A stretch of 64,000 nt of DNA from an uncultured bacterium. GTDB taxonomy: Bacteria > Bacillota > Clostridia > Oscillospirales > Oscillospiraceae. Of the stretch, positions 30,227-54,145 are shown in pieces. The notes beneath the pieces are model-generated. The model worked only from the letters and a program-made list of their open reading frames with translations. It was not told where the DNA came from and searched no databases. The stretch covers positions 1-64,000 of the forward strand of contig CAMNQF010000003.1 in assembly GCA_946548895.1 (NCBI GenBank), given 5' to 3'. The position numbers were made by a program, and so were the translations under genes. Every line of letters starts with the position of its first letter. Within the stretch, counting starts at the first letter, position 1.

Positions 30227-32614
30227 CTACTCCGCCGTCTTTTTCGTGGTCTTTTTGGCCGTTTCCGTCTTTTTCGCGGCGGTCTTCTTGGCGGCTGTGG
30301 TTTTTTTCGCCGCTGTGGTCTTGGCGGTGGACGCCGTCTTTTTCGCCGCTGTGGTCTTGGCGGTGGACGCCGTCTTTTTCGCCGCCGTGGTCTTGGCAGT
30401 GGACGCCGTCTTTTTCGCCGCGGGCTTCTTCTCCTCCGCCTGCCCGCCTTCGCCCTGGGCGGCGGTGTCCGCTTTCTTCTTGAAGCCGCCCCGCTTGTCC
30501 TCCGGCAGGAAATTGGAGCACGCCGGGTTGATGCAGAAGGGCCGCTTGAACCCCCGCCCGGACAGCTTGAACATGGTCTGGCCGCACACCGGGCAGTCGT
30601 CCTTCACCGGCACGTCCCAGGTCATGAAGTCGCAGCGCTTCTCTTCCACCTTGCTGTTCAGGTGCTCGCAGCAATAATAGGTATACTGCTTATTGGTCTT
30701 TTTGCTCACGCCGGTGCGCTTCACCAGACGGCCCCCGCACTTGGGGCACCGCCCGGGCATCTCCACCACCAGCGGTTTGGTAAAGGTGCACTCCGGCCAG
30801 CCGGGGCAGGCCAAAAACCGCCCGAACCGGCCCATTTTTACCACCATCTTCCGGCCGCACAGGTCGCACACCTCGTCCGACTCCTCGTCGGGCACCTTGA
30901 TGCGCTCGCCGTCCAGCTCGGATTCCGCCTTCTTCAGCTCCGCGTCAAAGCCGCTGTAGAACTCGCCCAGCACCTGCTTCCACGCCACCTCGCCGGCCTC
31001 CACCTTGTCCAGACGGCTCTCCATCTGGGCGGTGAAGTCGGCGTCCACAATATCGGGGAACTTCTCCTTCATCAGCCCCGTGACCACCTCGCCCAGGGGG
31101 GTGGGGCGCAGGTATTTGCCCTCCTTCACCACGTACTGCCGGTCGGTGATGGTAGAAATGGTGGGGGCGTAGGTGGACGGGCGGCCCACCCCCTTCTCCT
31201 CCAGCGCCTTAATGAGGGTGGCCTCGGTGAACCGGGCGGGGGGCTGGGTGAAATGCTGGCCGGGGGTTAAGCCGTCCAGCTTCAGCGGCTCCCCCTCCTT
31301 CAGGTCGGGCAGCGGCGACTGGGGGACCTCCTCATCCTCGTCCCGGCTCTCCTCGTAAACCGCTGTAAAGCCGCTGAACTTCACGGCGGAATGGCTGGCC
31401 CGGAAGCGGTAGCCCGCCGACTCCGCCTCAATGGTGACGCTGTCGTACACCGCCCCCGCCATCTGGCAGGCCAGAAACCGGCTCCAGATCAGCTTGTACA
31501 GGCGGTACTGGTCGGCGGTGAGGCTCTTTTTCAAGTCCTCCGGGGTGAGGTTCACGTCGGAGGGCCGGATGGCCTCGTGGGCGTCCTGGGCGCTGCCTTT
31601 GGACTTGAAACGCCGGGTCTTTTCCGGGTAATACTGCTTGCCATAACGGCTCTGGATGAAGGTCTTGGCCGCCGCCAGGGCCTCCTCCGACAGGCGCAGG
31701 GAGTCGGTACGCATATAGGTGATGAGGCCCACGGTGCCCACGCCCTGGATGTCCACCCCCTCGTACAGCTGCTGGGCGATGGACATGGTGCGCTTGGGGA
31801 TCATGTTCAGCTTGCGGGACGCCTCCTGCTGGAGGGTGGAGGTGGTGAAGGGGGGCGCGGGGCTGCGGTGCTTATCCTGCCGCTTCACCCCGGTTACCGT
31901 AAAAGGAGACCCCTTTACAGCGCTTACCACCTCCTGGACCTGCTCCTCGCTGGTGAGCTCCATCCGCTTTTCGCGGCCGTAGAACTCCGCCTGGAACCCC
32001 CCCACATTGGGGGCGACGCGGGACAGGCCGGCGGCGATGGACCAGTACTCCTGGGGGGTAAAGGCGCGGATCTCCTCCTCCCGCTCCACCGCGATCCGGG
32101 TGGCCACCGACTGCACCCGCCCGGCGGACAGCCCCCGGCGGATCTTCTTCCACAGCAGAGGCGAGAGCTGGTAGCCCACGATGCGGTCCAGCACCCGCCG
32201 GGCCTGCTGGGCGTCCACCAGGTCCTGGTCGATGCCGCGGGGATGGGCGATGGACTCCTTTACCACCTTCTGGGTGATCTCGTTGAACGTCACCCGGCAG
32301 GTCTTTTCCTTGGGCACGCCCAGCACGTTTTGGAGGTGCCAGGAAATGGCCTCCCCCTCCCGGTCCGGGTCGGTGGCCAGGTAGACCTTTTCGCTGGCCT
32401 TGGCGGACTTGCGCAGGTCCTTAATCACGTCCGCCTTGTCCTTGATGTTCAGGTACTCCGGCTCGAAGGTGGCCACATCCACCCCCAGGGTGCTCTTGGG
32501 CAGGTCCCGGATGTGGCCCATGGAGGCCTTCACCTCAAAGCCGGGGCCCAGGTACTTCCCGATGGTTTTCGCCTTTGCCGGCGACTCCACAATGACCAAA
32601 TTTGTCTTTGCCAT
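30227..32614 (-). CDS. topA: DNA topoisomerase I with histone-like Lys/Ala tail
   Basis: 795 aa. Type IA topoisomerase that relaxes negative supercoils. Toprim domain at the N terminus (LVIVESPAKAKTIGKYLG; DPDREGEAISWHL), catalytic Tyr in GLITYMRTDSLRLS (about residue 300), DAHEAIRPSD and GRPSTYAPTI. Three C-terminal zinc ribbons follow (CDLCGRKM..., CPKCGGRL..., CPVCGQTM...). The last about 75 residues are repeats of AAKKTASTAKTT and AKKT, a disordered basic tail like histone H1. Start at 32614 (MAKTNLVIV); a TTG three codons upstream, adjoining the dprA stop, is an alternative. Confidence 0.95.
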   Translation of the reverse strand: MAKTNLVIVESPAKAKTIGKYLGPGFEVKASMGHIRDLPKSTLGVDVATFEPEYLNIKDKADVIKDLRKSAKASEKVYLATDPDREGEAISWHLQNVLGVPKEKTCRVTFNEITQKVVKESIAHPRGIDQDLVDAQQARRVLDRIVGYQLSPLLWKKIRRGLSAGRVQSVATRIAVEREEEIRAFTPQEYWSIAAGLSRVAPNVGGFQAEFYGREKRMELTSEEQVQEVVSAVKGSPFTVTGVKRQDKHRSPAPPFTTSTLQQEASRKLNMIPKRTMSIAQQLYEGVDIQGVGTVGLITYMRTDSLRLSEEALAAAKTFIQSRYGKQYYPEKTRRFKSKGSAQDAHEAIRPSDVNLTPEDLKKSLTADQYRLYKLIWSRFLACQMAGAVYDSVTIEAESAGYRFRASHSAVKFSGFTAVYEESRDEDEEVPQSPLPDLKEGEPLKLDGLTPGQHFTQPPARFTEATLIKALEEKGVGRPSTYAPTISTITDRQYVVKEGKYLRPTPLGEVVTGLMKEKFPDIVDADFTAQMESRLDKVEAGEVAWKQVLGEFYSGFDAELKKAESELDGERIKVPDEESDEVCDLCGRKMVVKMGRFGRFLACPGWPECTFTKPLVVEMPGRCPKCGGRLVKRTGVSKKTNKQYTYYCCEHLNSKVEEKRCDFMTWDVPVKDDCPVCGQTMFKLSGRGFKRPFCINPACSNFLPEDKRGGFKKKADTAAQGEGGQAEEKKPAAKKTASTAKTTAAKKTASTAKTTAAKKTASTAKTTAAKKTTAAKKTAAKKTETAKKTTKKTAE
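30303..30410. repeat. Three 36-bp tandem repeats inside topA
   Basis: Copies at 30303-30338, 30339-30374 and 30375-30410. The first two are identical; the third has two substitutions. Each encodes 12 residues of the type AAKKTASTAKTT in the topA tail. Copy number is likely to vary between strains by slippage. Confidence 0.9.
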
Positions 32615-32623
32615 TCTATTCAA

Positions 32624-34811: not shown

Positions 34812-36947
34812 TTACTCGTCAGAGCCGAAGAACTCGCCCAGAATCTCGTCGCAGTTCATGGCGTAATCCTGGTCGTCCAGGCCCACCAGCGCGGCCAGCT
34901 CGGGCATCTCGATGCCCTTGAGCTTGGCGTAGCGGGACAGGAACAGCTTGGCCTGCTCCACAGTCACCAGCTCGTCGGGCAGGAACTCGGTGGCGGACAC
35001 GCCGTAAGCGATGTCGTTGGCCTGGCCCCAGCCGATGGCGTAGGCGTACTCATGGTCGGCGGGCACGTCCTCGAAGGTGGACAGGCCGGCCTCGGGGGAG
35101 CCCTCACGGCGGTACAGGTAATCCACGAACTCGGCGCGGGTCACAGGGCCAGCCAGAGGAATGGCGTTGTCGTCCAGCTCCACCTCGTCACCGCCACCCA
35201 GCGGGGTGTCGGTGTCGTCGATATAGACCTGGTCGTCGAACAGGGCGGGGATGGTATTGGGCGTACGGCTGAGTTCTTTCCCGCACACATCGCAGTAGAC
35301 CACGCTGTCGTAGGAGCCAGGCACGCCGATCTGGGGCGCAACGCGGTTCTCCTCAACGGGGTCGTTGGGGGTGTGGCCAGTGGCAGTACCGGGAATGGTG
35401 GTATCATAGGTGTCCCCGCAGCCTACGCAGACAAAAGAAACCTTCTCATCGTCCTCACAGGTCGCGGCCACACGGGCACTTTCATGATATCCCGCATGGT
35501 TCTTCCAGTCCTCGTACTCCACAGCGGTGGAACTGCCGCAGACGCCACAGCTGTACCACTTCAAGCCCTTCTGGGCACAAGTAGCTTCACGGATGACAGC
35601 GCCTTCAACGGTAAAGCTGCACTCGTGGTCGGCGTATTTGCCGCACATGGTGCATTTGCCGTCCACATAGTTGTGGTCGAGCTTTTCGATTACCTCGTAG
35701 TGCTCAAGCCCGCATTTACATTGGGTCACTTCAATGCCCATATGCTGGCAGGTAGCCTGCACCGCGTTGGGATGCCCCCCAACCGTAATATCAAAGCTGT
35801 GAGCAACGGGTTCGCTGTGAGTACCGCAGCCATAGCTATTCGCGCAGTACACAACGTGCTCGTCAAGGTTGAGCGGTACCAGCTTCCCAGAGAAATCATG
35901 CTCCAGCTTGCTGCCCGCCACAGTCCGGGTGTCGGTCGCGCCGCAGCCTTCGCGGTCGCACGTCGCGGTCTCGGTACCGTCCTTCATGCAGGTGGCGTCA
36001 TTGTTAGGCACATAGTTGGTGAAGCTGTGGCCCAGCTTGGTGCCCTCAAACACTTGGTCGTAAGACGCATTGCAGCCGGGGAAGCTGCAATTGTCCCACT
36101 TACACACCGCGTCCTCCGTGCAGGTGGCCTCGGTATCGTTATAATACTGATAGTTGTGCTTGCCCAGCGCCATATGGCAAGCCAGGCACTCAGCGGGATT
36201 CTTGCCGTGCTCGCACTTGTCGGTGGGGTCGACAGGTTCAGTGGGGTCGACAGGCGGCTCAGTGGTCTTCTTGTAGCCGCAGACATTGCACACGGTCTCA
36301 CCAGGGAGGTACAAGTGGGGTTCCTTCGTGCCAGTGGCGCCGCAGGTACGCACAGTCCAGTGACCATCCGCATCGAACTCACGATCATTCTTCACCGTGC
36401 AGGCGGCATCGTGGTTGCTGGAATCCACCCCAAGGGTAGTGGAGCTGATTTCATCCCCACAGTCGGCACACGTGACAGTCACGGAACCCTGATTGAGGCA
36501 GGTAGCGGCAACGGTCACGGTCTCAGTGTGGACGTGGTTGGCGGGATCAATCTGGAGTGTCGTTTCGCTGACCTTTTTCCCGCAGTCCTTGCACGTAACA
36601 GTCTCGGAACCAACATTGACACAAGTAGCTGCAACGGTCACGGTCTCAGTATTGGCGTGGTTGTTGGGGTCTTTGGAAAGTCTGTCAACAGGCCCAACAT
36701 AAACATTAGGAATACCACTATTCCTATGAAAGTTCCTTCCACAGAGAGTACATTCATAGTGGGCCTTTACGCCCTCAGCTGAACAGGTACCAGGTACTTC
36801 CGCAACATATGCCAACGAATTCTTCACGCAGAAAGGGCAATACCTACCATCCGCCGCAAAAGCGGTGGTGCCCAGCATCCCCACGCACATCATCAGGGCC
36901 AGAACCAGCGCGAGCGCGCGCTTGCCAACGTTTTTCAAATACATCAT
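34812..36947 (-). CDS. Large Cys-rich repeat surface protein with SLH-type C terminus, c-di-GMP riboswitch-controlled
   Basis: 711 aa, secreted: basic start then LALVLALMMCVGMLGTTAFA signal peptide. Residues about 30-570 hold many short Cys modules of the form C-x-x-C-G (CTLCGR, CKDCGKK, CADCGDE, CNVCGYK, CTMCGKY, CGVCGSS, CVGCGDT, CDVCGKE), each preceded by a distant third Cys (for example TVAATC then TVTCKDCG). These look like small rubredoxin/zinc-ribbon-like beta modules. The end (about 600-711) has SLH-like repeats (VTRAEFVDYLYRR, FEDVPADHEYAYAIGWGQAN, LVTVEQAKLFLSRYAKL) for wall anchoring. Start at 36947 after AAGGGA. Three GEMM aptamers in the leader imply c-di-GMP control. Binding partner unknown. 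Confidence 0.8.
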   Translation of the reverse strand: MMYLKNVGKRALALVLALMMCVGMLGTTAFAADGRYCPFCVKNSLAYVAEVPGTCSAEGVKAHYECTLCGRNFHRNSGIPNVYVGPVDRLSKDPNNHANTETVTVAATCVNVGSETVTCKDCGKKVSETTLQIDPANHVHTETVTVAATCLNQGSVTVTCADCGDEISSTTLGVDSSNHDAACTVKNDREFDADGHWTVRTCGATGTKEPHLYLPGETVCNVCGYKKTTEPPVDPTEPVDPTDKCEHGKNPAECLACHMALGKHNYQYYNDTEATCTEDAVCKWDNCSFPGCNASYDQVFEGTKLGHSFTNYVPNNDATCMKDGTETATCDREGCGATDTRTVAGSKLEHDFSGKLVPLNLDEHVVYCANSYGCGTHSEPVAHSFDITVGGHPNAVQATCQHMGIEVTQCKCGLEHYEVIEKLDHNYVDGKCTMCGKYADHECSFTVEGAVIREATCAQKGLKWYSCGVCGSSTAVEYEDWKNHAGYHESARVAATCEDDEKVSFVCVGCGDTYDTTIPGTATGHTPNDPVEENRVAPQIGVPGSYDSVVYCDVCGKELSRTPNTIPALFDDQVYIDDTDTPLGGGDEVELDDNAIPLAGPVTRAEFVDYLYRREGSPEAGLSTFEDVPADHEYAYAIGWGQANDIAYGVSATEFLPDELVTVEQAKLFLSRYAKLKGIEMPELAALVGLDDQDYAMNCDEILGEFFGSDE

Positions 36948-36996
36948 TTTTTTATTCGTCCCTTCTTTGCTGAAAATTACGGATGCAAAGTAATCC

Positions 36997-37145
36997 GGCG
37001 GCTGGGCTGCCATAGGTCCGGTTGACGCCGCTTCTTCAAAGCGGCTTCAGGGGTATACCCCTGACCTTACTTTGTTTCCATTGCTCGGGTCTCCGGGCCG
37101 TTAGGCCCCTGGCTTTGCGTCCCGCCGTTTCCAGCGGTTTGCCTC
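36997..37145 (-). promoter_or_regulatory. c-di-GMP-I (GEMM) riboswitch aptamer 3 (gene-proximal)
   Basis: Minus strand core GGCAAACCGCTGGAAACGGC then GGGACGCAAAGCC (37143-37111), followed by GGGGCCTAACGG. The 3' part CTATGGCAGCCCAGCCGCC is at about 37013-36997. The GAAA tetraloop (P1b), GACGCAAAGCC joint, CTAA motif and the 3' GCAGCCC-type strand are all GEMM-I consensus features. The variable arm is unusually long and holds two extra hairpins (TCAGGGGTATACCCCTGA; GCCGCTTTGAAGAAGCGGC). Confidence 0.88.
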
Positions 37146-37149
37146 GATC

Positions 37150-37270
37150 CAGCAGCCGGGCTGACTTAGCATCCTCACGGGGGTTGGGGTCTTCATCCCC
37201 ATTGCCTCCTTTGTCTGAGAACGCCTTAGTTCCCATGGCTTTGCGTCCCGCGGTTTCCCGCGGTTTGCCT
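37150..37270 (-). promoter_or_regulatory. c-di-GMP-I (GEMM) riboswitch aptamer 2
   Basis: Minus strand GGCAAACCGCGGGAAACCGC then GGGACGCAAAGCC (37269-37237), CATGGGAACTAAGG, and the 3' strand GAGGATGCTAAGTCAGCCCGG (37177-37157 region). All conserved GEMM-I elements are present, with a GAAA loop. Confidence 0.88.
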
Positions 37271-37274
37271 TTTT

Positions 37275-37368
37275 TCAGCAACCGGGCGAACATATCTCCG
37301 CCGCGCCGGGGCGCGGCTTCGACTTAGTCCCCATGGCTTTGCGTCCCACCGTTTCCGATGGTTTGCCA
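37275..37368 (-). promoter_or_regulatory. c-di-GMP-I (GEMM) riboswitch aptamer 1 (promoter-proximal)
   Basis: Minus strand GGCAAACCATCGGAAACGGT then GGGACGCAAAGCC (37367-37335), CATGGGGACTAAGTC, a GC hairpin (GCCGCGCCCCGGCGCGGC) and the 3' strand GATATGTTCGCCCGGTTGC (37297-37279 region). This is the most compact and canonical of the three. Confidence 0.9.
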
Positions 37369-37503
37369 AAATGCGCCCTGCCTGTCACCCTGCCGCCTCC
37401 GGCGCGTGTTCCGGCGGCAGGGATTTCCCAGGGCGGGACCGCCTCTCTCATGCGGCTCCCTCCTCTCTCGCGGGCGCACGCCCGCCCGTACTTCTCCACA
37501 ATC

Positions 37504-37650: not shown

Positions 37651-38697
37651 TTACTGCCTGCCCTCCGCCCGGGCCATAGCCAGCTGGAAATCCTTCTGGT
37701 CGGTGAAGATCTCGTTTTTGTACGGGTTCTTCTTCTGCTCAACGGCCCGCTTGATGATGAAAGCCAAGGCCACCACGTTCACCGCCAGGGCGATCACCGC
37801 CACCACGCCCTGCATGGTGGGGTCGGCGGCGGTGGGCCGCACCGCCGGGTTCATCGCCCCGTCGGCGTACAGCACGGGGATGACGGTGAACCGGCTGGCG
37901 TCCTGGAACAGGGGGAACACCTGGGCAAACATACACCACAGCGCCAGGGTGTTGGCCCGGTTCTGAATCCAGCCGCCCTTGTTCCACAGGGCGTTGGCAA
38001 AGGTGGGGGCCAGCAGCAGCGCCAGGCCGCAGTACCAGGCGTGGGTGGGCAGGTTGTTGTAGGTGTACTCAAAGTTCCACAGGTCGTAGGCCAGAATGTA
38101 CACAAAGGTCATGTCCGGCCACAGCATATCCCGCCGGTCCTTGGAGGCGTAGATCCCCCACCAGCCGGTCATGCACAGAATGTTGACCAGCCCCGCGATG
38201 CCGTTCACCCAGTTCCACCAGCCGCCGTACAGCCACACGTTCTCGCTGGACAGCCACCAGCGGTCGCCGTGCTCCGCCAGGGACATCAGGCCCTTCACGC
38301 CGGACTCAAAGTCGCTGACCACGGCAATCAGGATGTTGATGGCCACGATGACGAAGGGGAACGCCTTGAACCACTCCGTCTTGCCGATGCTCCACTTGTA
38401 CTTCAGCATCATGAAGCCGATGCACCCCGCCGTGGCGGCGTACAGCTTGGCGTAGTGGAACCAGCTGGTCATGTGCACATAGGTCTGGTTATTCAGCGCC
38501 CAGTCCATGCCCATGCCGGCGCACACATAGATGGCGATAAAGTAGACGGTGAGCGCCGCCGGAATGCCCAGAAAGCAGATGACGCCGCCCAGCTTGCTCC
38601 GGCGGGCGAATTCGTTGGCCAGCACCAGCCCGGTGAACACCAGCAGCCAGCCCAGCAGCTGCCAGCCCGCGCCGTCGCCATAGATTTGAAACAGCAT
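37651..38697 (-). CDS. DUF5692 family polytopic membrane protein
   Basis: 348 aa with about eight hydrophobic segments (LLGWLLVFTGLVLANEF, FLGIPAALTVYFIAIYV, FPFVIVAINILIAVV, and others), Trp-rich loops (YGGWWNWVNGIAGLVNI; YDLWNFEYTYNNLPTHAWY) and a short charged tail. It fits the DUF5692 family as I remember it; no transporter or enzyme motif is evident. AAGGAGG precedes the start. It is the last gene of the hypB-flavoprotein-hypA run, which hints at a link with nickel enzyme or electron transport, but that is inference. Confidence 0.65.
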   Translation of the reverse strand: MLFQIYGDGAGWQLLGWLLVFTGLVLANEFARRSKLGGVICFLGIPAALTVYFIAIYVCAGMGMDWALNNQTYVHMTSWFHYAKLYAATAGCIGFMMLKYKWSIGKTEWFKAFPFVIVAINILIAVVSDFESGVKGLMSLAEHGDRWWLSSENVWLYGGWWNWVNGIAGLVNILCMTGWWGIYASKDRRDMLWPDMTFVYILAYDLWNFEYTYNNLPTHAWYCGLALLLAPTFANALWNKGGWIQNRANTLALWCMFAQVFPLFQDASRFTVIPVLYADGAMNPAVRPTAADPTMQGVVAVIALAVNVVALAFIIKRAVEQKKNPYKNEIFTDQKDFQLAMARAEGRQ

Positions 38698-38763: not shown

Positions 38764-39108
38764 TCAGTATGCCTCAATCTCCTTGATGCTCACCTCGTTT
38801 CCCGTCAAAAGCCAGGTGTTTTCGCTCCGGCAGTGGGGGCAGGTGCGGCCGTGGGCCACGGTGGGGTAGTCCCGCCCGCAGCCGCCGCAGCGGGTGACGG
38901 CGGGCAGCGCCTCAATCTTCAGCTCCGAACCGCTGACCAGCTCCGACCTGGCCGCCGCCCACCTCCAGCAGTCGGTGAGGCAGTCCGGCACCACGCCGGA
39001 CACCTCCCCCAGCTCCAGCACCACGGCGGACACCTTTTCCAGGCCGTTCTCCGCCGCCACCCCCTCCACACTGCGGATGATGTGGAACACAATGCCCAAT
39101 TCGTGCAT
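38764..39108 (-). CDS. hypA: Hydrogenase/nickel maturation protein HypA
   Basis: 114 aa. Begins with the nickel-binding MHELGI motif (His2), and has the zinc site of two CxxC pairs (CGGCG near residue 74; CPHC near 91). Delivers nickel to [NiFe] hydrogenase together with HypB. It starts 3 bp after the stop of the 931-aa flavoprotein gene. No hydrogenase subunit is in the window. Confidence 0.93.
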   Translation of the reverse strand: MHELGIVFHIIRSVEGVAAENGLEKVSAVVLELGEVSGVVPDCLTDCWRWAAARSELVSGSELKIEALPAVTRCGGCGRDYPTVAHGRTCPHCRSENTWLLTGNEVSIKEIEAY

Positions 39109-39111
39109 GAA

Positions 39112-41907
39112 TTACTTCCTGTTCTTCCTGGCCGCCCGGCGGATCTTGATCTCCCGTTTCACCATGTTGGGCATGATGGCCTTCATCTTGTCCTCGCTCT
39201 TCATCATAGTAGAGCACTCGGGCCGGTCCCGGAACAGATGGATGGCGTCAAACTCGCACCGGGTGGTGCACAGGCCGCAGCCGATACACTTGTTGGGGTC
39301 CACAATGGACGCGCCGCAGCCCAGGCACCGGGCGGTCTCCGCTTTGACCTGCTCCTCGGTGAAGGTGCGCTTCGCGTCCCGGAAGGACTTCTTCCAGTCG
39401 AAGCTGCCGTCCATACCCGGGATCTGCCGTGCGGCGGTGTCGTACTGCTCCACTTTGATGTTGTTCTTGTCCAGCTCCACAAAGTACCGGGGGTCCCGGC
39501 CGATGGTCATGCTGGTGCTGGGCTGGACGAAGCGGTGGAGGGAAACGGCCGCCTCCTTGCCCGCCGCGATGGCGTCGATGGCGAACTTGGGGCCGGTGAA
39601 CACATCGCCGCCCACGAACACGTCGGGCTGGGCGGTCTGGTAGGTTTTGGCGTCGGCCTTGGCCCAGCCGCCCCGGGCCAGCTCCACTTGACTGCCCTCC
39701 AGCAGCTGGCCCCACTCCACGCTCTGGCCGATGGACAGCACCACGTGGCCGCAGGGGACGGTGATGGTGTCCTGTTCGTCGTACTGGGGGGCGAAGCGTC
39801 CCTGGCCGTCCCACACGCTGGTGCAGCGCATGAACACCACGCCGGACACTTTGCCGCCCTCGCTCAGTATCTCTTTCGGGCCCCAGCCGCACTGGATGGT
39901 GATATCCTCCTCCTCCGCCTCGGCGATCTCCTCCGGGGAGGCGGGCATCTGATCCCTGGGCTCCAGGCAATACATGGCTACGCTGTCCGCCCCGCAGCGG
40001 TGGGCGGTGCGGGCGGCGTCAATGGCCACGTTGCCGCCGCCCACCACCACGGTTCTGCCGGGAACCTGTACGCCCTTCCCCTCTGCCGCCGCACGCAGGA
40101 ACTCTACGGCGGAGTACACGCCGGGGGTGTCCTCTCCGGGAATTCCCGGCAGGCGGCCCCGCTGGCAGCCGATGGCGATATAGAACGCCTCGTAGCCCTG
40201 GGCCCGCAAATCATCCAAAGTCAGGTCTTTGCCCACTTCAACTCCGCAGCGGAAGTCCACCCCCAGGGCCCGGATGACGTCGATCTCCGCGTCCAGCACA
40301 TCCTTCTCCAGCTTGAAGGAGGGGATGCCGTAGCGCAGCATTCCGCCCAGCTCTTTGTTTTTCTCGAACACGGTTGGCTCGTAACCCTTGAGGGCCAGGT
40401 AGAAAGCGCAGGACAGCCCCGCCGGGCCGCCGCCGATGATGGCGATCTTCTGGGAGAAGGCCCCTTCCACCTTGGGGATCACCTTTTCCGGCACAAAGCG
40501 GTGCTCCGCCTTTAAATCCTGCTGGGCAATGAATTTCTTCACCTCGTCGATGGCCACGGCCTGGTCGATGGTGCCCCGGGTGCAGGCGTCCTCACACCGG
40601 CGGTTGCACACCCGGCCGCACACCGCCGGGAAGGGGTTCTCCTTCTTGATGAGCTCCAGGGCTTCGGCGTACTTGCCCTGGGCCGCCAGCTTGAGATAGC
40701 CCTGGACGGCGATGTGGGCGGGGCAGGCGGTCTTGCAGGGGGCGGTACCCGTCTCGTGGGTGTTAATCCGATTCTTGTCACGGTAGTCCACGGACCACTT
40801 CTCCGGCCCCCACTTCACCTCGTCGGGCAGCTCCTGGCGGGGGTAGCGGATGGGAGCGCCGTCCTTGGCGCACAGCTTCTGACCCAGCTTGGCCGCCCCG
40901 GCGGGGCAGACCTCCACACAGCCGCCGCAGGCCACGCACTTGTCCCGCTCCACCTTGGCCACATAGGCGGACCGGCTCATATTGGGGGTGTTGAACAGCT
41001 GGCTGGTGCGCAGGGCGTTGCACACATTGACATTGCAGTTGCAGATGGCGAAAATCTTCTGGTCGCCGTCAATGTTGGTGATCTGGTGGACGTAGCCGTT
41101 GGCCTCCGCCTTGCGGAAAATCTCCAGGGCCTCCTCCTTGGTGATGTAGCGGCCCCCTTTGTCCGTCTCCACCACATAGTCCGCCATGTCGCCCACGGCG
41201 ACGCACCAGTCGTCGGCGTCGTCGCCGCAGCCCTCCCCCAGCTTGGCCCGGCTCATCCGGCAGGAGCAGGGGGAGGCGGCGTATTTGCCCTCGTACTTGT
41301 CCAGCCAGTGGGAGATGTGCTCGATGGAGATGGACTTGCTCTCCATGCCAATGGCCTTTTCCACGGGAATCACGTGCATCCCAATGCCCGCCCCGCCGGG
41401 GGGCACCATGGGGGTGATTTTCTCCAGGGGCAGGAAAGTCATGCGCTCGAAAAACGCCGCCACCTCCGGGTGCCCGTCGATCTGGGCCCGGCGCATATTG
41501 AAGAACTCCGCGCTGCCCGGCACAAACATGGGCAGGACGTACCGCTTCTCATGGTTGGGATTCTTGCCGTCCAGGTTCTCCCAGTGGTACTCAACCAGGC
41601 CGATGAGGCTCATCTCGTCCAGCAACTTTTGCAGCCTGTCCGGCTCCATGCCGGTGAGTTTCTGAATCTGCTCAAAGGTCTTGGGCCTGCGCACCTTCAT
41701 TTTCAGGGCCACGTCCGCCATCTCGTCCGTCACCAGCCCCGCCAGCCCCCAGTACTCCGGGTCGTCCCCGGTGACCCCGTGGAGCTTGGCGGGCACCCGG
41801 TCGGTAATCATCCGGCCAAGCTTGACGATCTTTTCCCGGGGCTTGTCCGTCTTGGGAATTTCAAACGGCAGCCCGCTCTCATCCAGGGGGAATTTTGTCT
41901 CGCTCAT
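39112..41907 (-). CDS. Multi-cluster Fe-S FAD oxidoreductase (GltD-like) between hypB and hypA
   Basis: 931 aa. N-terminal part (about 50-110) is winged-helix-like. Then come unusual Cys groups CSC-R (214-216) with Cys 227 and 235, and CNCNVNVC (289-296). A ferredoxin motif CVACGGCVEVCP is at 324-335. From about 385 the protein is like the glutamate synthase small subunit: CKTACPAHIAVQGYL and CGRVCNRRCEDACTRG (N-terminal clusters), FAD motif AIIGGGPAGLSCAFYLA (489-505), NAD(P) motif VVVGGGNVAIDAARTA (620-635) and GGDVFTGPKFAIDAIAAG. The C terminus has CLGCGASIVDPNKCIGCGLC (two more cluster motifs). A cytoplasmic electron-bifurcating or transfer role is likely; the substrate is unknown. Confidence 0.8.
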   Translation of the reverse strand: MSETKFPLDESGLPFEIPKTDKPREKIVKLGRMITDRVPAKLHGVTGDDPEYWGLAGLVTDEMADVALKMKVRRPKTFEQIQKLTGMEPDRLQKLLDEMSLIGLVEYHWENLDGKNPNHEKRYVLPMFVPGSAEFFNMRRAQIDGHPEVAAFFERMTFLPLEKITPMVPPGGAGIGMHVIPVEKAIGMESKSISIEHISHWLDKYEGKYAASPCSCRMSRAKLGEGCGDDADDWCVAVGDMADYVVETDKGGRYITKEEALEIFRKAEANGYVHQITNIDGDQKIFAICNCNVNVCNALRTSQLFNTPNMSRSAYVAKVERDKCVACGGCVEVCPAGAAKLGQKLCAKDGAPIRYPRQELPDEVKWGPEKWSVDYRDKNRINTHETGTAPCKTACPAHIAVQGYLKLAAQGKYAEALELIKKENPFPAVCGRVCNRRCEDACTRGTIDQAVAIDEVKKFIAQQDLKAEHRFVPEKVIPKVEGAFSQKIAIIGGGPAGLSCAFYLALKGYEPTVFEKNKELGGMLRYGIPSFKLEKDVLDAEIDVIRALGVDFRCGVEVGKDLTLDDLRAQGYEAFYIAIGCQRGRLPGIPGEDTPGVYSAVEFLRAAAEGKGVQVPGRTVVVGGGNVAIDAARTAHRCGADSVAMYCLEPRDQMPASPEEIAEAEEEDITIQCGWGPKEILSEGGKVSGVVFMRCTSVWDGQGRFAPQYDEQDTITVPCGHVVLSIGQSVEWGQLLEGSQVELARGGWAKADAKTYQTAQPDVFVGGDVFTGPKFAIDAIAAGKEAAVSLHRFVQPSTSMTIGRDPRYFVELDKNNIKVEQYDTAARQIPGMDGSFDWKKSFRDAKRTFTEEQVKAETARCLGCGASIVDPNKCIGCGLCTTRCEFDAIHLFRDRPECSTMMKSEDKMKAIMPNMVKREIKIRRAARKNRK

Positions 41908-41962
41908 TTCGCCTCTCCTCTCTTCCTTTCAAGCGCAGCGCGGCGGTCCTCGCCTTCAGGGC

Positions 41963-42631
41963 TCAGGCGCGCCAGCTCCTGACCTGCTCCCGCAGCCAGT
42001 CCGCCCACTCCCCGACCCCTTCGCCGGTCTTGGCGCAGATGGGGATGACCTTCGCCTTCGGGTTGCGCATTTTGATGTACTCCCGGCACTTTTCCATATC
42101 AAAATCAAAATAGGGGGCCACGTCGGTCTTGTTGATGAGCACCACGTCGCACACCTGGAACATCAGGGGGTACTTCAGCGGCTTGTCGTCCCCCTCCGGA
42201 ACAGACAGGATGGCGGCGTTCTTCACCGCCCCGGTGTCGAATTCCGCCGGGCACACCAGGTTGCCCACGTTCTCCAGAATGGCCAGCTCCACGTCGCCTT
42301 CGATGAGCTGGTCCAGTCCCTGCCGGGTCATGTCCGCGTCCAGGTGGCACATCCCGCCGGTGTGGAGCTGGATGGCCTTCACCCCCGCCGCCGCCATGGC
42401 CCGGGCGTCCACGTCGGAGTCGATGTCCGCCTCCATCACGCCGATTTTCATCTCATCCCTCAGCAGCTCCACCGTGCGCCGCAGGGTGGTGGTCTTGCCC
42501 GCGCCGGGGGAGCTCATCAGGTTGAGCAGGAAAATCCCCCGCTCCTTCAGCTCCTGCCGGAGCTGGTCCGCCCGCCTGTCATTGTCCGCGAAAACGCTCT
42601 GCTTTACCTCAATCACCCGAACTTGATCCAT
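41963..42631 (-). CDS. hypB: Hydrogenase nickel incorporation GTPase HypB
   Basis: 222 aa. G-domain P-loop LMSSPGAGKTTTLRR, EADIDSDVDARAM, HTGGMCHLDADM with the intersubunit metal-binding Cys/His, ILENVGNLVCPAEFD, and LINKTDVAPYF (NKxD guanine specificity). Hydrolyses GTP to insert nickel into [NiFe] hydrogenase together with HypA. No His-rich N-terminal nickel store. First gene of its operon, with promoter at 42674-42702. Confidence 0.94.
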   Translation of the reverse strand: MDQVRVIEVKQSVFADNDRRADQLRQELKERGIFLLNLMSSPGAGKTTTLRRTVELLRDEMKIGVMEADIDSDVDARAMAAAGVKAIQLHTGGMCHLDADMTRQGLDQLIEGDVELAILENVGNLVCPAEFDTGAVKNAAILSVPEGDDKPLKYPLMFQVCDVVLINKTDVAPYFDFDMEKCREYIKMRNPKAKVIPICAKTGEGVGEWADWLREQVRSWRA

Positions 42632-53170: not shown

Positions 53171-54088
53171 TCAATCCTCCCGCCACTGATCCCTGTTGTG
53201 ATCGGACCAAACCACCTGGTTGCGCCCCAGCCGTTTGGCGTCGTACAGCATGGCGTCCGCCGTCTTCAGGTAGGTTTCAAGCTGGTCGCCCATCTTGGGC
53301 ACCACGGTAACGCCGCCGATGCTCACCGTGACCCACTGGCTCACCGGGGAACTGTGAGGGATATGCAGGTCCTCCACCGCCTGCCGGATGGTCTTCATGA
53401 ACTCGAAGGCCGGGCGGGCCTCGCTGCCCACAAAGACCGCCACAAACTCCTCCCCGCCGTAGCGGGCAAAGAGGTCCGTGGCCCGCCAGAAGAAAGAGGA
53501 TATCTTCTGGGCCACAGTGGATATCACCTTGTCCCCCGCCGGGTGGCCGAAGGTGTCGTTGTACACTTTAAACTTGTCGATATCAAACATACAGATGGTG
53601 ATGGGCAGGCCAAACCGCACCGCCTCCTGCCAGCGGGCGGCGCTCTCGCTCTCATACCGCCGGCGGTTGGCCACGCCGGTCAGCTCGTCCACCATGGCCT
53701 GCTCCCGGAACTGCATCTGATACCGAAACAGCTGGATATGGGTGTTCACCCGGGCCCGGATAATCACCGGGCTGAACGGCTTGGTCACATAGTCCACCGC
53801 CCCCAGCAGCAGCCCCCGCTCCTCGTACTGGATGTCGGCCAGGCTGGTGAGCAAAATCACCGGGATGTGCTTGGTCAGCACCGTGGCCTTCAGCTCCCGA
53901 AGCAGCATGAAGCCATCCATTCCCGGCATGACCACATCCAGCAGGATGAGGGAGAATCCTCCCTCTTTGGCGGCGGCCAGCCCCTCCTCCGCCGTGTGGC
54001 ATACGGCCAGCTCATAGTCATCCTTCAAGATCGAGCACAGGAATTCGGTCTGCACCGCGCTGTCGTCGATCACTAATATCTTATCCAT
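53171..54088 (-). CDS. Response regulator with GGDEF diguanylate cyclase domain
   Basis: 305 aa. REC domain 1-120: KILVIDDSAVQTEF, acceptor Asp in LILLDVVMPGMDG, Thr/Ser LLTSLAD and Lys VTKPFSP. GGDEF domain about 135-300: ANRRRYESE, CMFDIDKFKVYND, and the active-site loop RYGGEEFVAVF (GGEEF, catalytically competent), so it should make c-di-GMP when phosphorylated. No RxxD inhibitory site is obvious before GGEEF. Start chosen at 54088 (MDKILVIDD); two in-frame Mets upstream lack better ribosome sites. It follows the PAS gene at 54146 and may sense its signal. Confidence 0.88.
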   Translation of the reverse strand: MDKILVIDDSAVQTEFLCSILKDDYELAVCHTAEEGLAAAKEGGFSLILLDVVMPGMDGFMLLRELKATVLTKHIPVILLTSLADIQYEERGLLLGAVDYVTKPFSPVIIRARVNTHIQLFRYQMQFREQAMVDELTGVANRRRYESESAARWQEAVRFGLPITICMFDIDKFKVYNDTFGHPAGDKVISTVAQKISSFFWRATDLFARYGGEEFVAVFVGSEARPAFEFMKTIRQAVEDLHIPHSSPVSQWVTVSIGGVTVVPKMGDQLETYLKTADAMLYDAKRLGRNQVVWSDHNRDQWRED

Positions 54089-54145
54089 GGGTCCCGCCCC
54101 CATCCTTTCCACCATCTCCGTCCAGCCTGCGCCAGGCGGACCAAA

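What the first reader, a model, noticed from the sequence alone, without database searches (positions are those of the whole stretch)
36997..37368. Three consecutive c-di-GMP-I riboswitch aptamers in one leader
The minus strand repeats the GEMM-I core three times (GGCAAACC-n-GGAAAC-n-GGGACGCAAAGCC followed by a CTAA-type joint and a 3' GCCCGG or GCAGCCC strand). Single and double GEMM arrays are established; a triple array on one surface protein gene is rare and would allow a steep or layered response to c-di-GMP. The three differ in stems and arm lengths, so they are not a recent simple duplication.
Basis: partly seen in the sequence, partly recalled or inferred. Interest (0 to 1): 0.88.

Follow-up and report, generated by a model that had tools for sequence, protein, structure and literature searches.

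The report
Compact multi-sensor c-di-GMP riboswitch arrays
An RNA leader of a gut bacterium's surface-protein gene packs three sensors for the signal molecule c-di-GMP almost end to end in front of what looks like one shared on/off switch at the ribosome-binding site, an arrangement not described for this sensor in the papers we could search.

Summary
The three aptamers are real: RF01051 scores 59.9, 57.6 and 56.7 bits (cut-off 35) at 37377-37274, 37279-37149 and 37153-36994, minus strand. Triplets of this riboswitch are already in print (PMC4759541; 12 in PMC9481103). The layout is what differs: linkers are 8 nt, leaving no room for a platform between aptamers. In relatives, compact runs reach five aptamers. 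Of 55 arrays called compact by spacing alone, 54 carry one 3' element after the last aptamer, CCGGA-n-CUUUGC(G/A)UCCG-n-GCAAAG, which runs into the Shine-Dalgarno sequence; 2 of 16 spaced arrays have it. It can form an H-type pseudoknot. Its strand CUUUGCGUCC is the exact complement of the aptamer core GGACGCAAAG; the window carries a one-mismatch form. I propose a translational switch in which all aptamers compete for this one strand and c-di-GMP turns translation OFF. The architecture is well supported; mechanism and direction are inferred. The window's own predicted fold shows neither state, and its complementarity alone is not significant. Downstream genes look like secreted SLH- or sortase-type proteins.

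The parts
37279..37368 (-). Aptamer 1 (c-di-GMP-I, RF01051), trimmed boundaries; C92-equivalent is 37278
   Evidence: 59.9 bits for 37377-37274; 74.8 bits with R1
37271..37278 (-). Linker 1, 8 nt (ctgaaaaa)
37153..37270 (-). Aptamer 2 (c-di-GMP-I), long P3 arm
   Evidence: 57.6 bits for 37279-37149; 66.7 bits with R1
37145..37152 (-). Linker 2, 8 nt (ctggatcg)
36999..37144 (-). Aptamer 3 (c-di-GMP-I) with a long P3 insertion that contains the palindrome GGGGTATACCCC
   Evidence: 56.7 bits for 37153-36994; the shorter alternative 37085-37153 scores 40.6. The longer reading ends directly at the 3' element, as in relatives. In a consensus fold made from this sequence and L038, one pair changes on both sides, two on one side, none breaks
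36980..36997 (-). Platform stem S1: CGGAU (36997-36993) with AUCCG (36984-36980), directly after C92 (36998)
   Evidence: S1 covariation, 0/500 shuffles on 65 distinct sequences, 13 of the 14 two-sided changes at one pair
36965..36990 (-). Platform stem S2: CUUUGC (36990-36985) with GCAAAG (36970-36965). Crosses S1, so an H-type pseudoknot if both form at once. The same strand (CUUUGCAUCC, 36990-36981) is complementary to the aptamer core GGACGCAAAG with one mismatch
36960..36966 (-). Shine-Dalgarno-like AGAAGGG, whose first two bases lie in S2
   Evidence: sequence
34812..36947 (-). Presumed controlled gene: 711-aa protein with signal-peptide-like start and a weak C-terminal SLH match
   Evidence: SLH 15.6 bits against cut-off 20.8, E 0.017; nothing at E 0.001
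37388..37422 (-). 5' leader hairpin CCCTGCCGCC / GGCGGCAGGG
37373..37405 (-). Proposed second pseudoknot pairing: hairpin-loop GCGCC (37405-37401) with GGCGC (37377-37373) just before aptamer 1
   Evidence: permutation 0/2000 over 46 unique leaders, relatedness not removed

Best explanation
This is a c-di-GMP-I riboswitch with several adjacent aptamers and one shared translational platform. Without ligand, the 3' strand CUUUGC(G/A)UCC pairs with the core (GGACGCAAAG) of any unoccupied aptamer; the Shine-Dalgarno region stays open and the surface protein is made. When c-di-GMP fills the aptamers their cores are locked. The strand is released and pairs instead with the split copy of that core beside the ribosome-binding site, GGA in S1 and GCAAAG in S2. 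This pseudoknot, next to the last aptamer's C92, hinders translation (OFF). Because one strand serves N aptamers, N (1 to 5 in relatives) would mainly set the c-di-GMP threshold. Shown by sequence: the aptamers, the short linkers, the common 3' element with S1 covariation, the 9-10 nt complementarity. Inferred: that the strand really switches, the OFF direction, the threshold role.
For: (1) Three aptamers over the cut-off; the G20-equivalent is G in 201 of 201 aptamers of platform arrays. (2) Linkers in compact runs are 1-11 nt in 103 of 116 and 22-31 nt in 13; a strict terminator test gives 0 of 119 compact gaps, 12 of 17 spaced gaps in arrays without the 3' element and 0 of 5 spaced gaps in arrays with it. 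(3) Classed by spacing alone, 54 of 55 compact arrays carry the 3' element, against 2 of 16 spaced arrays and 3 of 13 singles. Searching genomes for the element alone, with no aptamer letters, gave 28 matches outside the window's genome; 26 were examined (four of those arrays were already held), 23 abut an R1 aptamer, one (L152) lies 46 nt after it, L162 is at a contig edge and L149 looks like chance. The backward-read control is 0 in every row shown. (4) S1 covaries: 0/500 shuffles. (5) The start codon lies 38-49 nt after the last aptamer in 43 of 48 platform arrays with a readable gene; the other five are those whose last aptamer R1 cut short. (6) The longest exact complement between a core and the 3' flank is 10 nt in 36 of 55 compact arrays, 2 of 16 spaced and 1 of 13 singles. 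(7) In the energy model the best core:strand pairing and the S2 hairpin differ by at most 3.0 kcal/mol in 43 of 58 arrays (my count). (8) Three GGDEF genes over the cut-off in this genome, one in the window.
Against: In the window, with all three aptamers present, the fold predicts neither core:strand pairing nor S1/S2 (all about 0); with aptamer 3 alone core:strand is 0.375. The CAUCC form (17 of 59, including the window) has a C-A mismatch with the core; its uninterrupted complement is 6-7 nt, and shuffled flanks reach that in 0.13 of cases for the window. The 59 and 79 platform arrays, and alignment A7, were selected by patterns that fix CUUUGC, UCC/UCU and GCRRRG, so the high pairing of S2 and part of the complementarity are there by selection; S2 in addition hardly varies. 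One compact array (L076, first) has a pseudoknot-capable platform but no core complement. S2 overlaps the Shine-Dalgarno sequence by only two bases. No control with randomised strands was run for the energies, and S2 was modelled there as a hairpin, not a pseudoknot. Complementarity to an invariant core cannot covary, and all platforms may descend from one ancestor. The terminator test had little room to succeed in 1-11 nt linkers (it saw the linker, 15 nt before and 3 after). No binding or expression data exist.
Confidence: 0.45

Rival explanations
1. Same compact array and platform, opposite sign: c-di-GMP stabilises a short P1 between the 5' flank of the last aptamer and GGAU, which breaks S1 and the pseudoknot and turns translation ON. 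Core pairing plays no part.
For: In last aptamers with an incoming linker of 4-11 nt, 25 of 34 can pair at 18-94 and 29 of 34 at 17-95. Surface proteins induced by c-di-GMP would fit a sessile lifestyle (general knowledge).
Against: No P1 covariation in any class. Last aptamers with linkers of 3 nt or less can pair at 18-94 in 15 of 19 but at 17-95 in only 2 of 19. Leaves the core complementarity unexplained.
Confidence: 0.27
2. Three independent riboswitches in series, as published for tandem c-di-GMP-I riboswitches, giving a digital response.
For: Published model for Bc3-5 (PMC4759541, section 4) and the class listing in PMC9481103. Spaced arrays in other genera of the family often have terminators (8 of the 11 loci L124-L133 and L135 have at least one).
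Against: Linkers of 1-31 nt, 0 of 119 with a terminator, though the shortest leave hardly any room to find one; one common 3' element, only after the last aptamer.
Confidence: 0.08
3. Only the last aptamer switches; the upstream aptamers are ligand buffers, folding chaperones or mRNA-stability elements.
For: The platform abuts only the last aptamer; in 8 of 79 platform arrays only one aptamer stands in the compact run; some first aptamers have altered cores (L044, L045, L048, L052).
Against: G20 is G in all 201 aptamers, and 192 of 201 keep GCAAA; all three window aptamers are kept in L038.
Confidence: 0.14
4. Transcription attenuation: a short hairpin after the last aptamer (S1) with a following T-rich stretch acts as a weak terminator.
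For: The terminator scan flags S1 in the window. A strict script flags 12 of 79 platform arrays: 7 at S1, the window among them, and 5 at a hairpin made by the end of the last aptamer with CCG.
Against: 67 of 79 are not flagged; the S1 stem is 5 bp; the element keeps its distance to the start codon.
Confidence: 0.06

Closest known systems
c-di-GMP-I (GEMM-I) riboswitch aptamer, Rfam RF01051
   Same: Each aptamer scores well above the gathering score; conserved core, GAAA loop, CUAA-type joint
   Different: Here 1-5 aptamers stand in close succession before one shared 3' element
[quoted passage not shown] abstract, start of introduction and section 4 seen)
   Same: Three c-di-GMP-I aptamers in one leader
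   Different: There each unit is predicted to have its own terminator and to switch transcription ON; here no terminator is seen between aptamers and the platform lies at the ribosome-binding site
Adjacent-aptamer riboswitches, typified by glycine (PMC9481103 and PMC12452182; passages seen)
   Same: Aptamers closer than 20 nt followed by a single platform
   Different: Up to five aptamers, another ligand; in the passages I saw, PMC9481103 places c-di-GMP-I under multiple platforms (my reading of a flattened table) and PMC12452182 calls contiguous c-di-GMP riboswitches complete tandem units
SLH motif, an orphan riboswitch candidate (PMC6429828; passages seen)
   Same: Lies upstream of SLH-domain surface proteins in Clostridia, Negativicutes and Synergistaceae; its authors suggest c-di-GMP as a possible ligand
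   Different: Its consensus is only in a figure that is not held, so identity with the present 3' element is untested
H-type pseudoknot riboswitches at the ribosome-binding site, such as preQ1-I (recalled, not from a call)
   Same: Crossed stems whose last strand meets the Shine-Dalgarno sequence
   Different: Here the pseudoknot would be the platform, not the ligand pocket

Membership tests
c-di-GMP-I riboswitch (RF01051) | Covariance-model score over the gathering score of 35 bits | tested here: met
   59.9, 57.6, 56.7 bits
c-di-GMP-I riboswitch (RF01051) | G at the position that selects c-di-GMP over c-AMP-GMP (residue number 20 recalled; the G/A rule is in the PMC9481103 passages) | tested here: met
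   G in 201 of 201 aptamers of platform arrays; GGCAAACC in all three window aptamers
c-di-GMP-I riboswitch (RF01051) | Binding of c-di-GMP | not testable with these tools
   needs in-line probing
Tandem (pseudo-cooperative) c-di-GMP-I riboswitch, Bc3-5 type | Each aptamer followed by its own expression platform | tested here: not met
   8-nt linkers in the window; no terminator in any of 119 compact linkers (the shortest linkers could hardly score). A platform of another kind inside a linker is not excluded by a test, only by lack of room
Adjacent-aptamer riboswitch (definition of PMC12452182: aptamers less than 20 nt apart, then one platform) | Distance below 20 nt and a single platform | tested here: met
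   8 and 8 nt in the window; 103 of 116 compact gaps in platform arrays are 1-11 nt, 13 are 22-31 nt; one 3' element after the last aptamer. That it acts as a platform is inferred
Adjacent-aptamer riboswitch (glycine type) | Cooperative ligand binding | not testable with these tools
   needs dose-response data
SLH motif (PMC6429828) | Match to the published consensus | not testable with these tools
   figure and supplements not held; Rfam scan of 36930-37060 gave no relevant family

The most novel reading that the evidence does not exclude
A riboswitch in which a single anti-core strand, copied from the complement of the aptamer's own invariant core, is fought over by N near-identical sensors and a ribosome-site pseudoknot built from a split mimic of that core. 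Adding or removing sensors (1 to 5) then tunes the ligand threshold of one shared switch across a family of surface-protein genes.
Probability: 0.32. Interest if true: 0.88.

Novelty: new variant of a known kind. Interest (0 to 1): 0.72.

Why it matters
It is a natural series of one to five sensors of one kind in front of the same platform, which makes the question of what extra aptamers do (steeper response, shifted threshold or nothing) directly testable. It would also add an adjacent-aptamer, translational form to a class listed so far (in the two surveys whose passages I saw) with one platform per aptamer, point to a set of c-di-GMP-controlled surface proteins in gut Oscillospiraceae, and offer a candidate identity for the orphan SLH motif.

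Tried and rejected
P1 helix: tested in five classes of aptamers; observed pairing never exceeded the permutation mean, so no P1 is claimed. Array-wide closing helix between the 5' leader GGCGCA and the 3' UUGCGUCC: seen by eye in some arrays, not consistent across arrays, dropped without a statistical test.

Terminator in the window: only the S1 hairpin is flagged on the minus strand. Phage origin: 0 matches in viral contigs to a narrower form of the platform pattern. Rfam at a permissive threshold on 36930-37060: nothing relevant; RsmY and snoRNA hits are below their cut-offs.

Low identity of flanks in L038 (65%, 68%) was dropped: the DUF5692 gene is missing there and the ectodomain is divergent, so those columns are not homologous. 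Steep response by a shared strand: an equilibrium model gives a Hill slope of 1.00 and a threshold rising with N; an all-must-bind model gives at most 1.33 at N=5.

Papers: the nine searches listed no description of adjacent c-di-GMP-I aptamers on one platform, nor of quadruplets. That covers only the open-access library; most papers were seen as listings only, and only 20 of 44, 20 of 35 and 10 of 41 papers were listed.

Selection and drops: genus loci were chosen from RF01051 hits; three single hits of G029 were not fetched. The 16 family loci were picked by me from a cut-off list, 13 because listed hits lay close together and three with one listed hit. 14 duplicate loci and L050 (no flank) were dropped before the counts; 19 of 125 arrays with repeated sequence were dropped, whose 79 platform arrays include those fetched by the platform pattern. 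One search left out 10 arrays without a hairpin and one with too little leader. From the 67 platform stretches, L104 and one of L064 were left out of A7 and the window added (66 rows, 65 distinct). Two of the 28 platform matches outside the window's genome (G071:C113, C126) had no locus and were not examined. R1 cut some long last aptamers short (window, L038, L044, L064, L085, L152 at least), so I take the 11 of 201 C92 readings that are not C to be boundary errors, not checked one by one. The core finder misread some cores, which can only lower the counts. The start-codon distance printed searches only from 16 nt on; one search is used instead. L144 counts as a run of three but is probably five. 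Counts of quadruplets and of the quintuplet rest on draft contigs.

Full report
OBSERVATION. The leader of the gene at 36947-34812 (minus strand) holds three c-di-GMP-I aptamers. cmscan reports two over the gathering score of 35 bits (59.9 and 56.7 bits) and the genome search adds the middle one (57.6 bits). A model built here from 37 aptamers of the same genus and trimmed of flanks (R1) places them at 37368-37279, 37270-37153 and from 37144 on. The third has a long insertion in P3: the full reading to 36994 scores 56.7 bits, a shorter one 40.6. The full reading ends exactly at the 3' element described below, as in relatives. In a consensus fold of this aptamer with its counterpart in L038, one pair changes on both sides, two on one side and none breaks, over 13 differences. 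The aptamers are 72-78% identical to one another and 91-97.5% identical to their counterparts in L038, while the 51 nt after the last aptamer are identical. By blastn the leader segment is 88.6% identical over 779 nt, flanking DNA 85-87%, and the secreted ectodomain is far more divergent. So the arrangement is kept.

LAYOUT. The window's linkers are 8 and 8 nt. In the genus, 17 of 42 genomes have RF01051; compact arrays of two or more are in 11 of the 42 by my grouping. Of 59 arrays read in detail there, 16 are compact triplets and 6 compact quadruplets (all gaps at most 31 nt). Over all loci fetched, 106 unique arrays of 125 remained after removing repeats; 79 carry the 3' element (some were fetched because of it), with compact runs of one (8), two (36), three (26), four (8) and five (1) aptamers; gaps in these runs are 1-31 nt, 28 of 116 being exactly 2 nt. 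A strict terminator test found none in 119 compact gaps, 12 in 17 spaced gaps of arrays without the 3' element and none in 5 spaced gaps of arrays with it; the shortest linkers had hardly room to score. In other genera of the family, 11 loci that I looked at (L124-L133, L135) are spaced, 8 of them with at least one terminator by that test, whereas L134, L136 and L137 are compact.

THE 3' ELEMENT. After the last aptamer comes CCGGA(U/C)-n-CUUUGC(G/A)UCCG-n-GCAAAG-(A)AAGG. Classed by spacing alone, 54 of 55 compact arrays have it, against 2 of 16 spaced arrays and 3 of 13 singles. The start codon lies 38-49 nt after the last aptamer in 43 of 48 platform arrays with a readable gene; the other five are cases in which R1 stopped early. 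Stem S1 (CGGAY/RUCCG) covaries: 14 cells with changes on both sides, 13 of them at one pair (UA 27, UG 24, CG 13, other 1 of 65), 0 of 500 shuffles reach this, and slid controls fall to 27-43% paired; on a first set of 32 sequences with only four S1 pairs the result was weak (32 of 500 shuffles). Stem S2 (CUUUGC/GCAAAG) is 99.5% paired, but the sequences were selected by patterns that nearly fix it, so this is not independent support; one array (L076, first) has replaced CUUUGC by a form that can pair with the neighbouring CAGCA (by eye). S1 and S2 cross, so together they make an H-type pseudoknot whose last strand runs into the Shine-Dalgarno sequence. Searching genomes for this element alone gave matches in 10 of 300 family genomes, 1 of 394 order genomes (the window's own) and 4 of 398 phylum genomes (own included), the last in two other families. 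Within those two families it is in 1 of 13 and 2 of 10 genomes. The backward-read control is 0 in every row shown. Of 28 matches outside the window's genome 26 were examined: 23 abut an R1 aptamer, L152 lies 46 nt after one, L162 starts at a contig edge and L149 looks like chance. A strict tandem-core pattern over the 84,980-species collection gave 23 stretches; titles, where informative, are Oscillospiraceae, Oscillibacter, Angelakisella and clostridial MAGs.

ANTI-CORE STRAND. CUUUGCGUCC is the reverse complement of GGACGCAAAG, the conserved core of the aptamer. The longest exact complement between an aptamer core and the 3' flank is 10 nt in 36 of 55 compact arrays, 9 in 1, 8 in 1, 7 in 5, 6 in 11 and 4 in 1; among 16 spaced arrays it is 10 in the two that carry the element and 3-6 in the rest. 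In the CGUCC form dinucleotide shuffles of the flank reach the observed length in 0-1% of cases; in the CAUCC form (17 of 59 platform loci, including the window, one mismatch to the core) in 0-17%, and in 13% for the window itself. GGA of S1 and GCAAAG of S2 look like the two halves of the core, so the strand can pair either with a core or with this split copy. In the nearest-neighbour model the best core pairing and the S2 hairpin differ by at most 3.0 kcal/mol in 43 of 58 arrays (my count; no randomised control). In the window the model predicts neither with all three aptamers present, and 0.375 for the core pairing with aptamer 3 alone; this counts against a simple reading here, as do the mismatch and the exception in L076.

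5' LEADER. A GC-rich hairpin (37422-37388) has a loop, GCGCC, complementary to GGCGC just before aptamer 1. Across 46 unique leaders matched pairs score 15.4 against 14.3 with shuffled partners, 0 of 2000; relatedness is not removed, and 10 arrays without a hairpin were left out. Some compact arrays lack it by eye (L107, L110, L111, L134), so it is an accessory.

CONTEXT. Of 48 platform arrays with a readable downstream gene, all 48 products have a signal-peptide-like start by a crude rule; of 38 complete ones 23 have SLH-like and 10 sortase-like C-termini by motif and 5 neither. In Pfam, 6 of 10 downstream proteins show SLH at E below 0.1, two of the six under the curated cut-off, the window's among them; one of the ten (L036) follows a spaced pair. 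The genome has three GGDEF genes over the cut-off and two EAL matches just over theirs. One response-regulator GGDEF protein with a GGEEF motif lies in the window at 54115-53171.

MECHANISM. My best reading is translational repression by c-di-GMP through release of a shared anti-core strand, as stated above. Steps shown: aptamers, spacing, element and its S1, complementarity. Steps inferred: switching, direction, role of N. If one strand is shared, equilibrium gives EC50 about proportional to N with Hill slope 1.00; an all-must-bind case gives slopes up to 1.33 at N=5. So the natural series is a clean test of threshold tuning against cooperativity.

COMPARISON WITH PRINT. PMC4759541 (abstract, section 4) describes a triplet in which each unit is predicted to form its own terminator. 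PMC9481103 (passages) reports 347 doublets and 12 triplets of c-di-GMP-I and, as I read its flattened table, lists them under multiple platforms. PMC12452182 (passages) defines adjacent aptamers as under 20 nt apart and describes c-di-GMP as arranged in complete tandem units. PMC6429828 (passages) describes the orphan SLH motif, with c-di-GMP suggested as ligand; its consensus could not be seen. Nine searches listed no paper on compact single-platform c-di-GMP-I arrays in the held library; some of the 12 published triplets may still be of this kind.

Noticed in passing
window 37050-37061; also L038, L064, L072, L085: The palindrome GGGGTATACCCC sits inside the P3 insertion of the last aptamer in several arrays and occurs at only one other place in the window's genome (C36:33652). 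It may be a small hairpin element that inserts into P3, or a conserved arm.
   Followed up: partly
L040, L046, L049, L051, L058, L060-L063, L070, L073, L074: Last aptamers of many arrays share a larger P3 insertion (GGGGCGCGCTGGCC...CGCCC), by eye not seen in upstream aptamers of the same array; function unknown.
   Followed up: no
window 37651-38697 (-): DUF5692 gene between HypA and the array; no blastn match at this place in the relative L038.
   Followed up: partly
window 38764-42631 (-): HypA, a 931-aa iron-sulfur/pyridine-nucleotide oxidoreductase and a HypB/CobW-type GTPase lie together; looks like a nickel or hydrogenase maturation cluster.
   Followed up: no
window 53171-54115 (-): Response regulator with GGDEF domain and GGEEF motif, a likely diguanylate cyclase about 16 kb from the array.
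   Followed up: partly
G000:C1:46253-46572 (L036): The same genome also has a spaced c-di-GMP-I pair (158 nt apart, terminator between) without the 3' element, before another secreted protein: both architectures coexist.
   Followed up: partly
window 30227-32623 (-): Topoisomerase I with a lysine/alanine/threonine-rich repetitive C-terminal tail.
   Followed up: no
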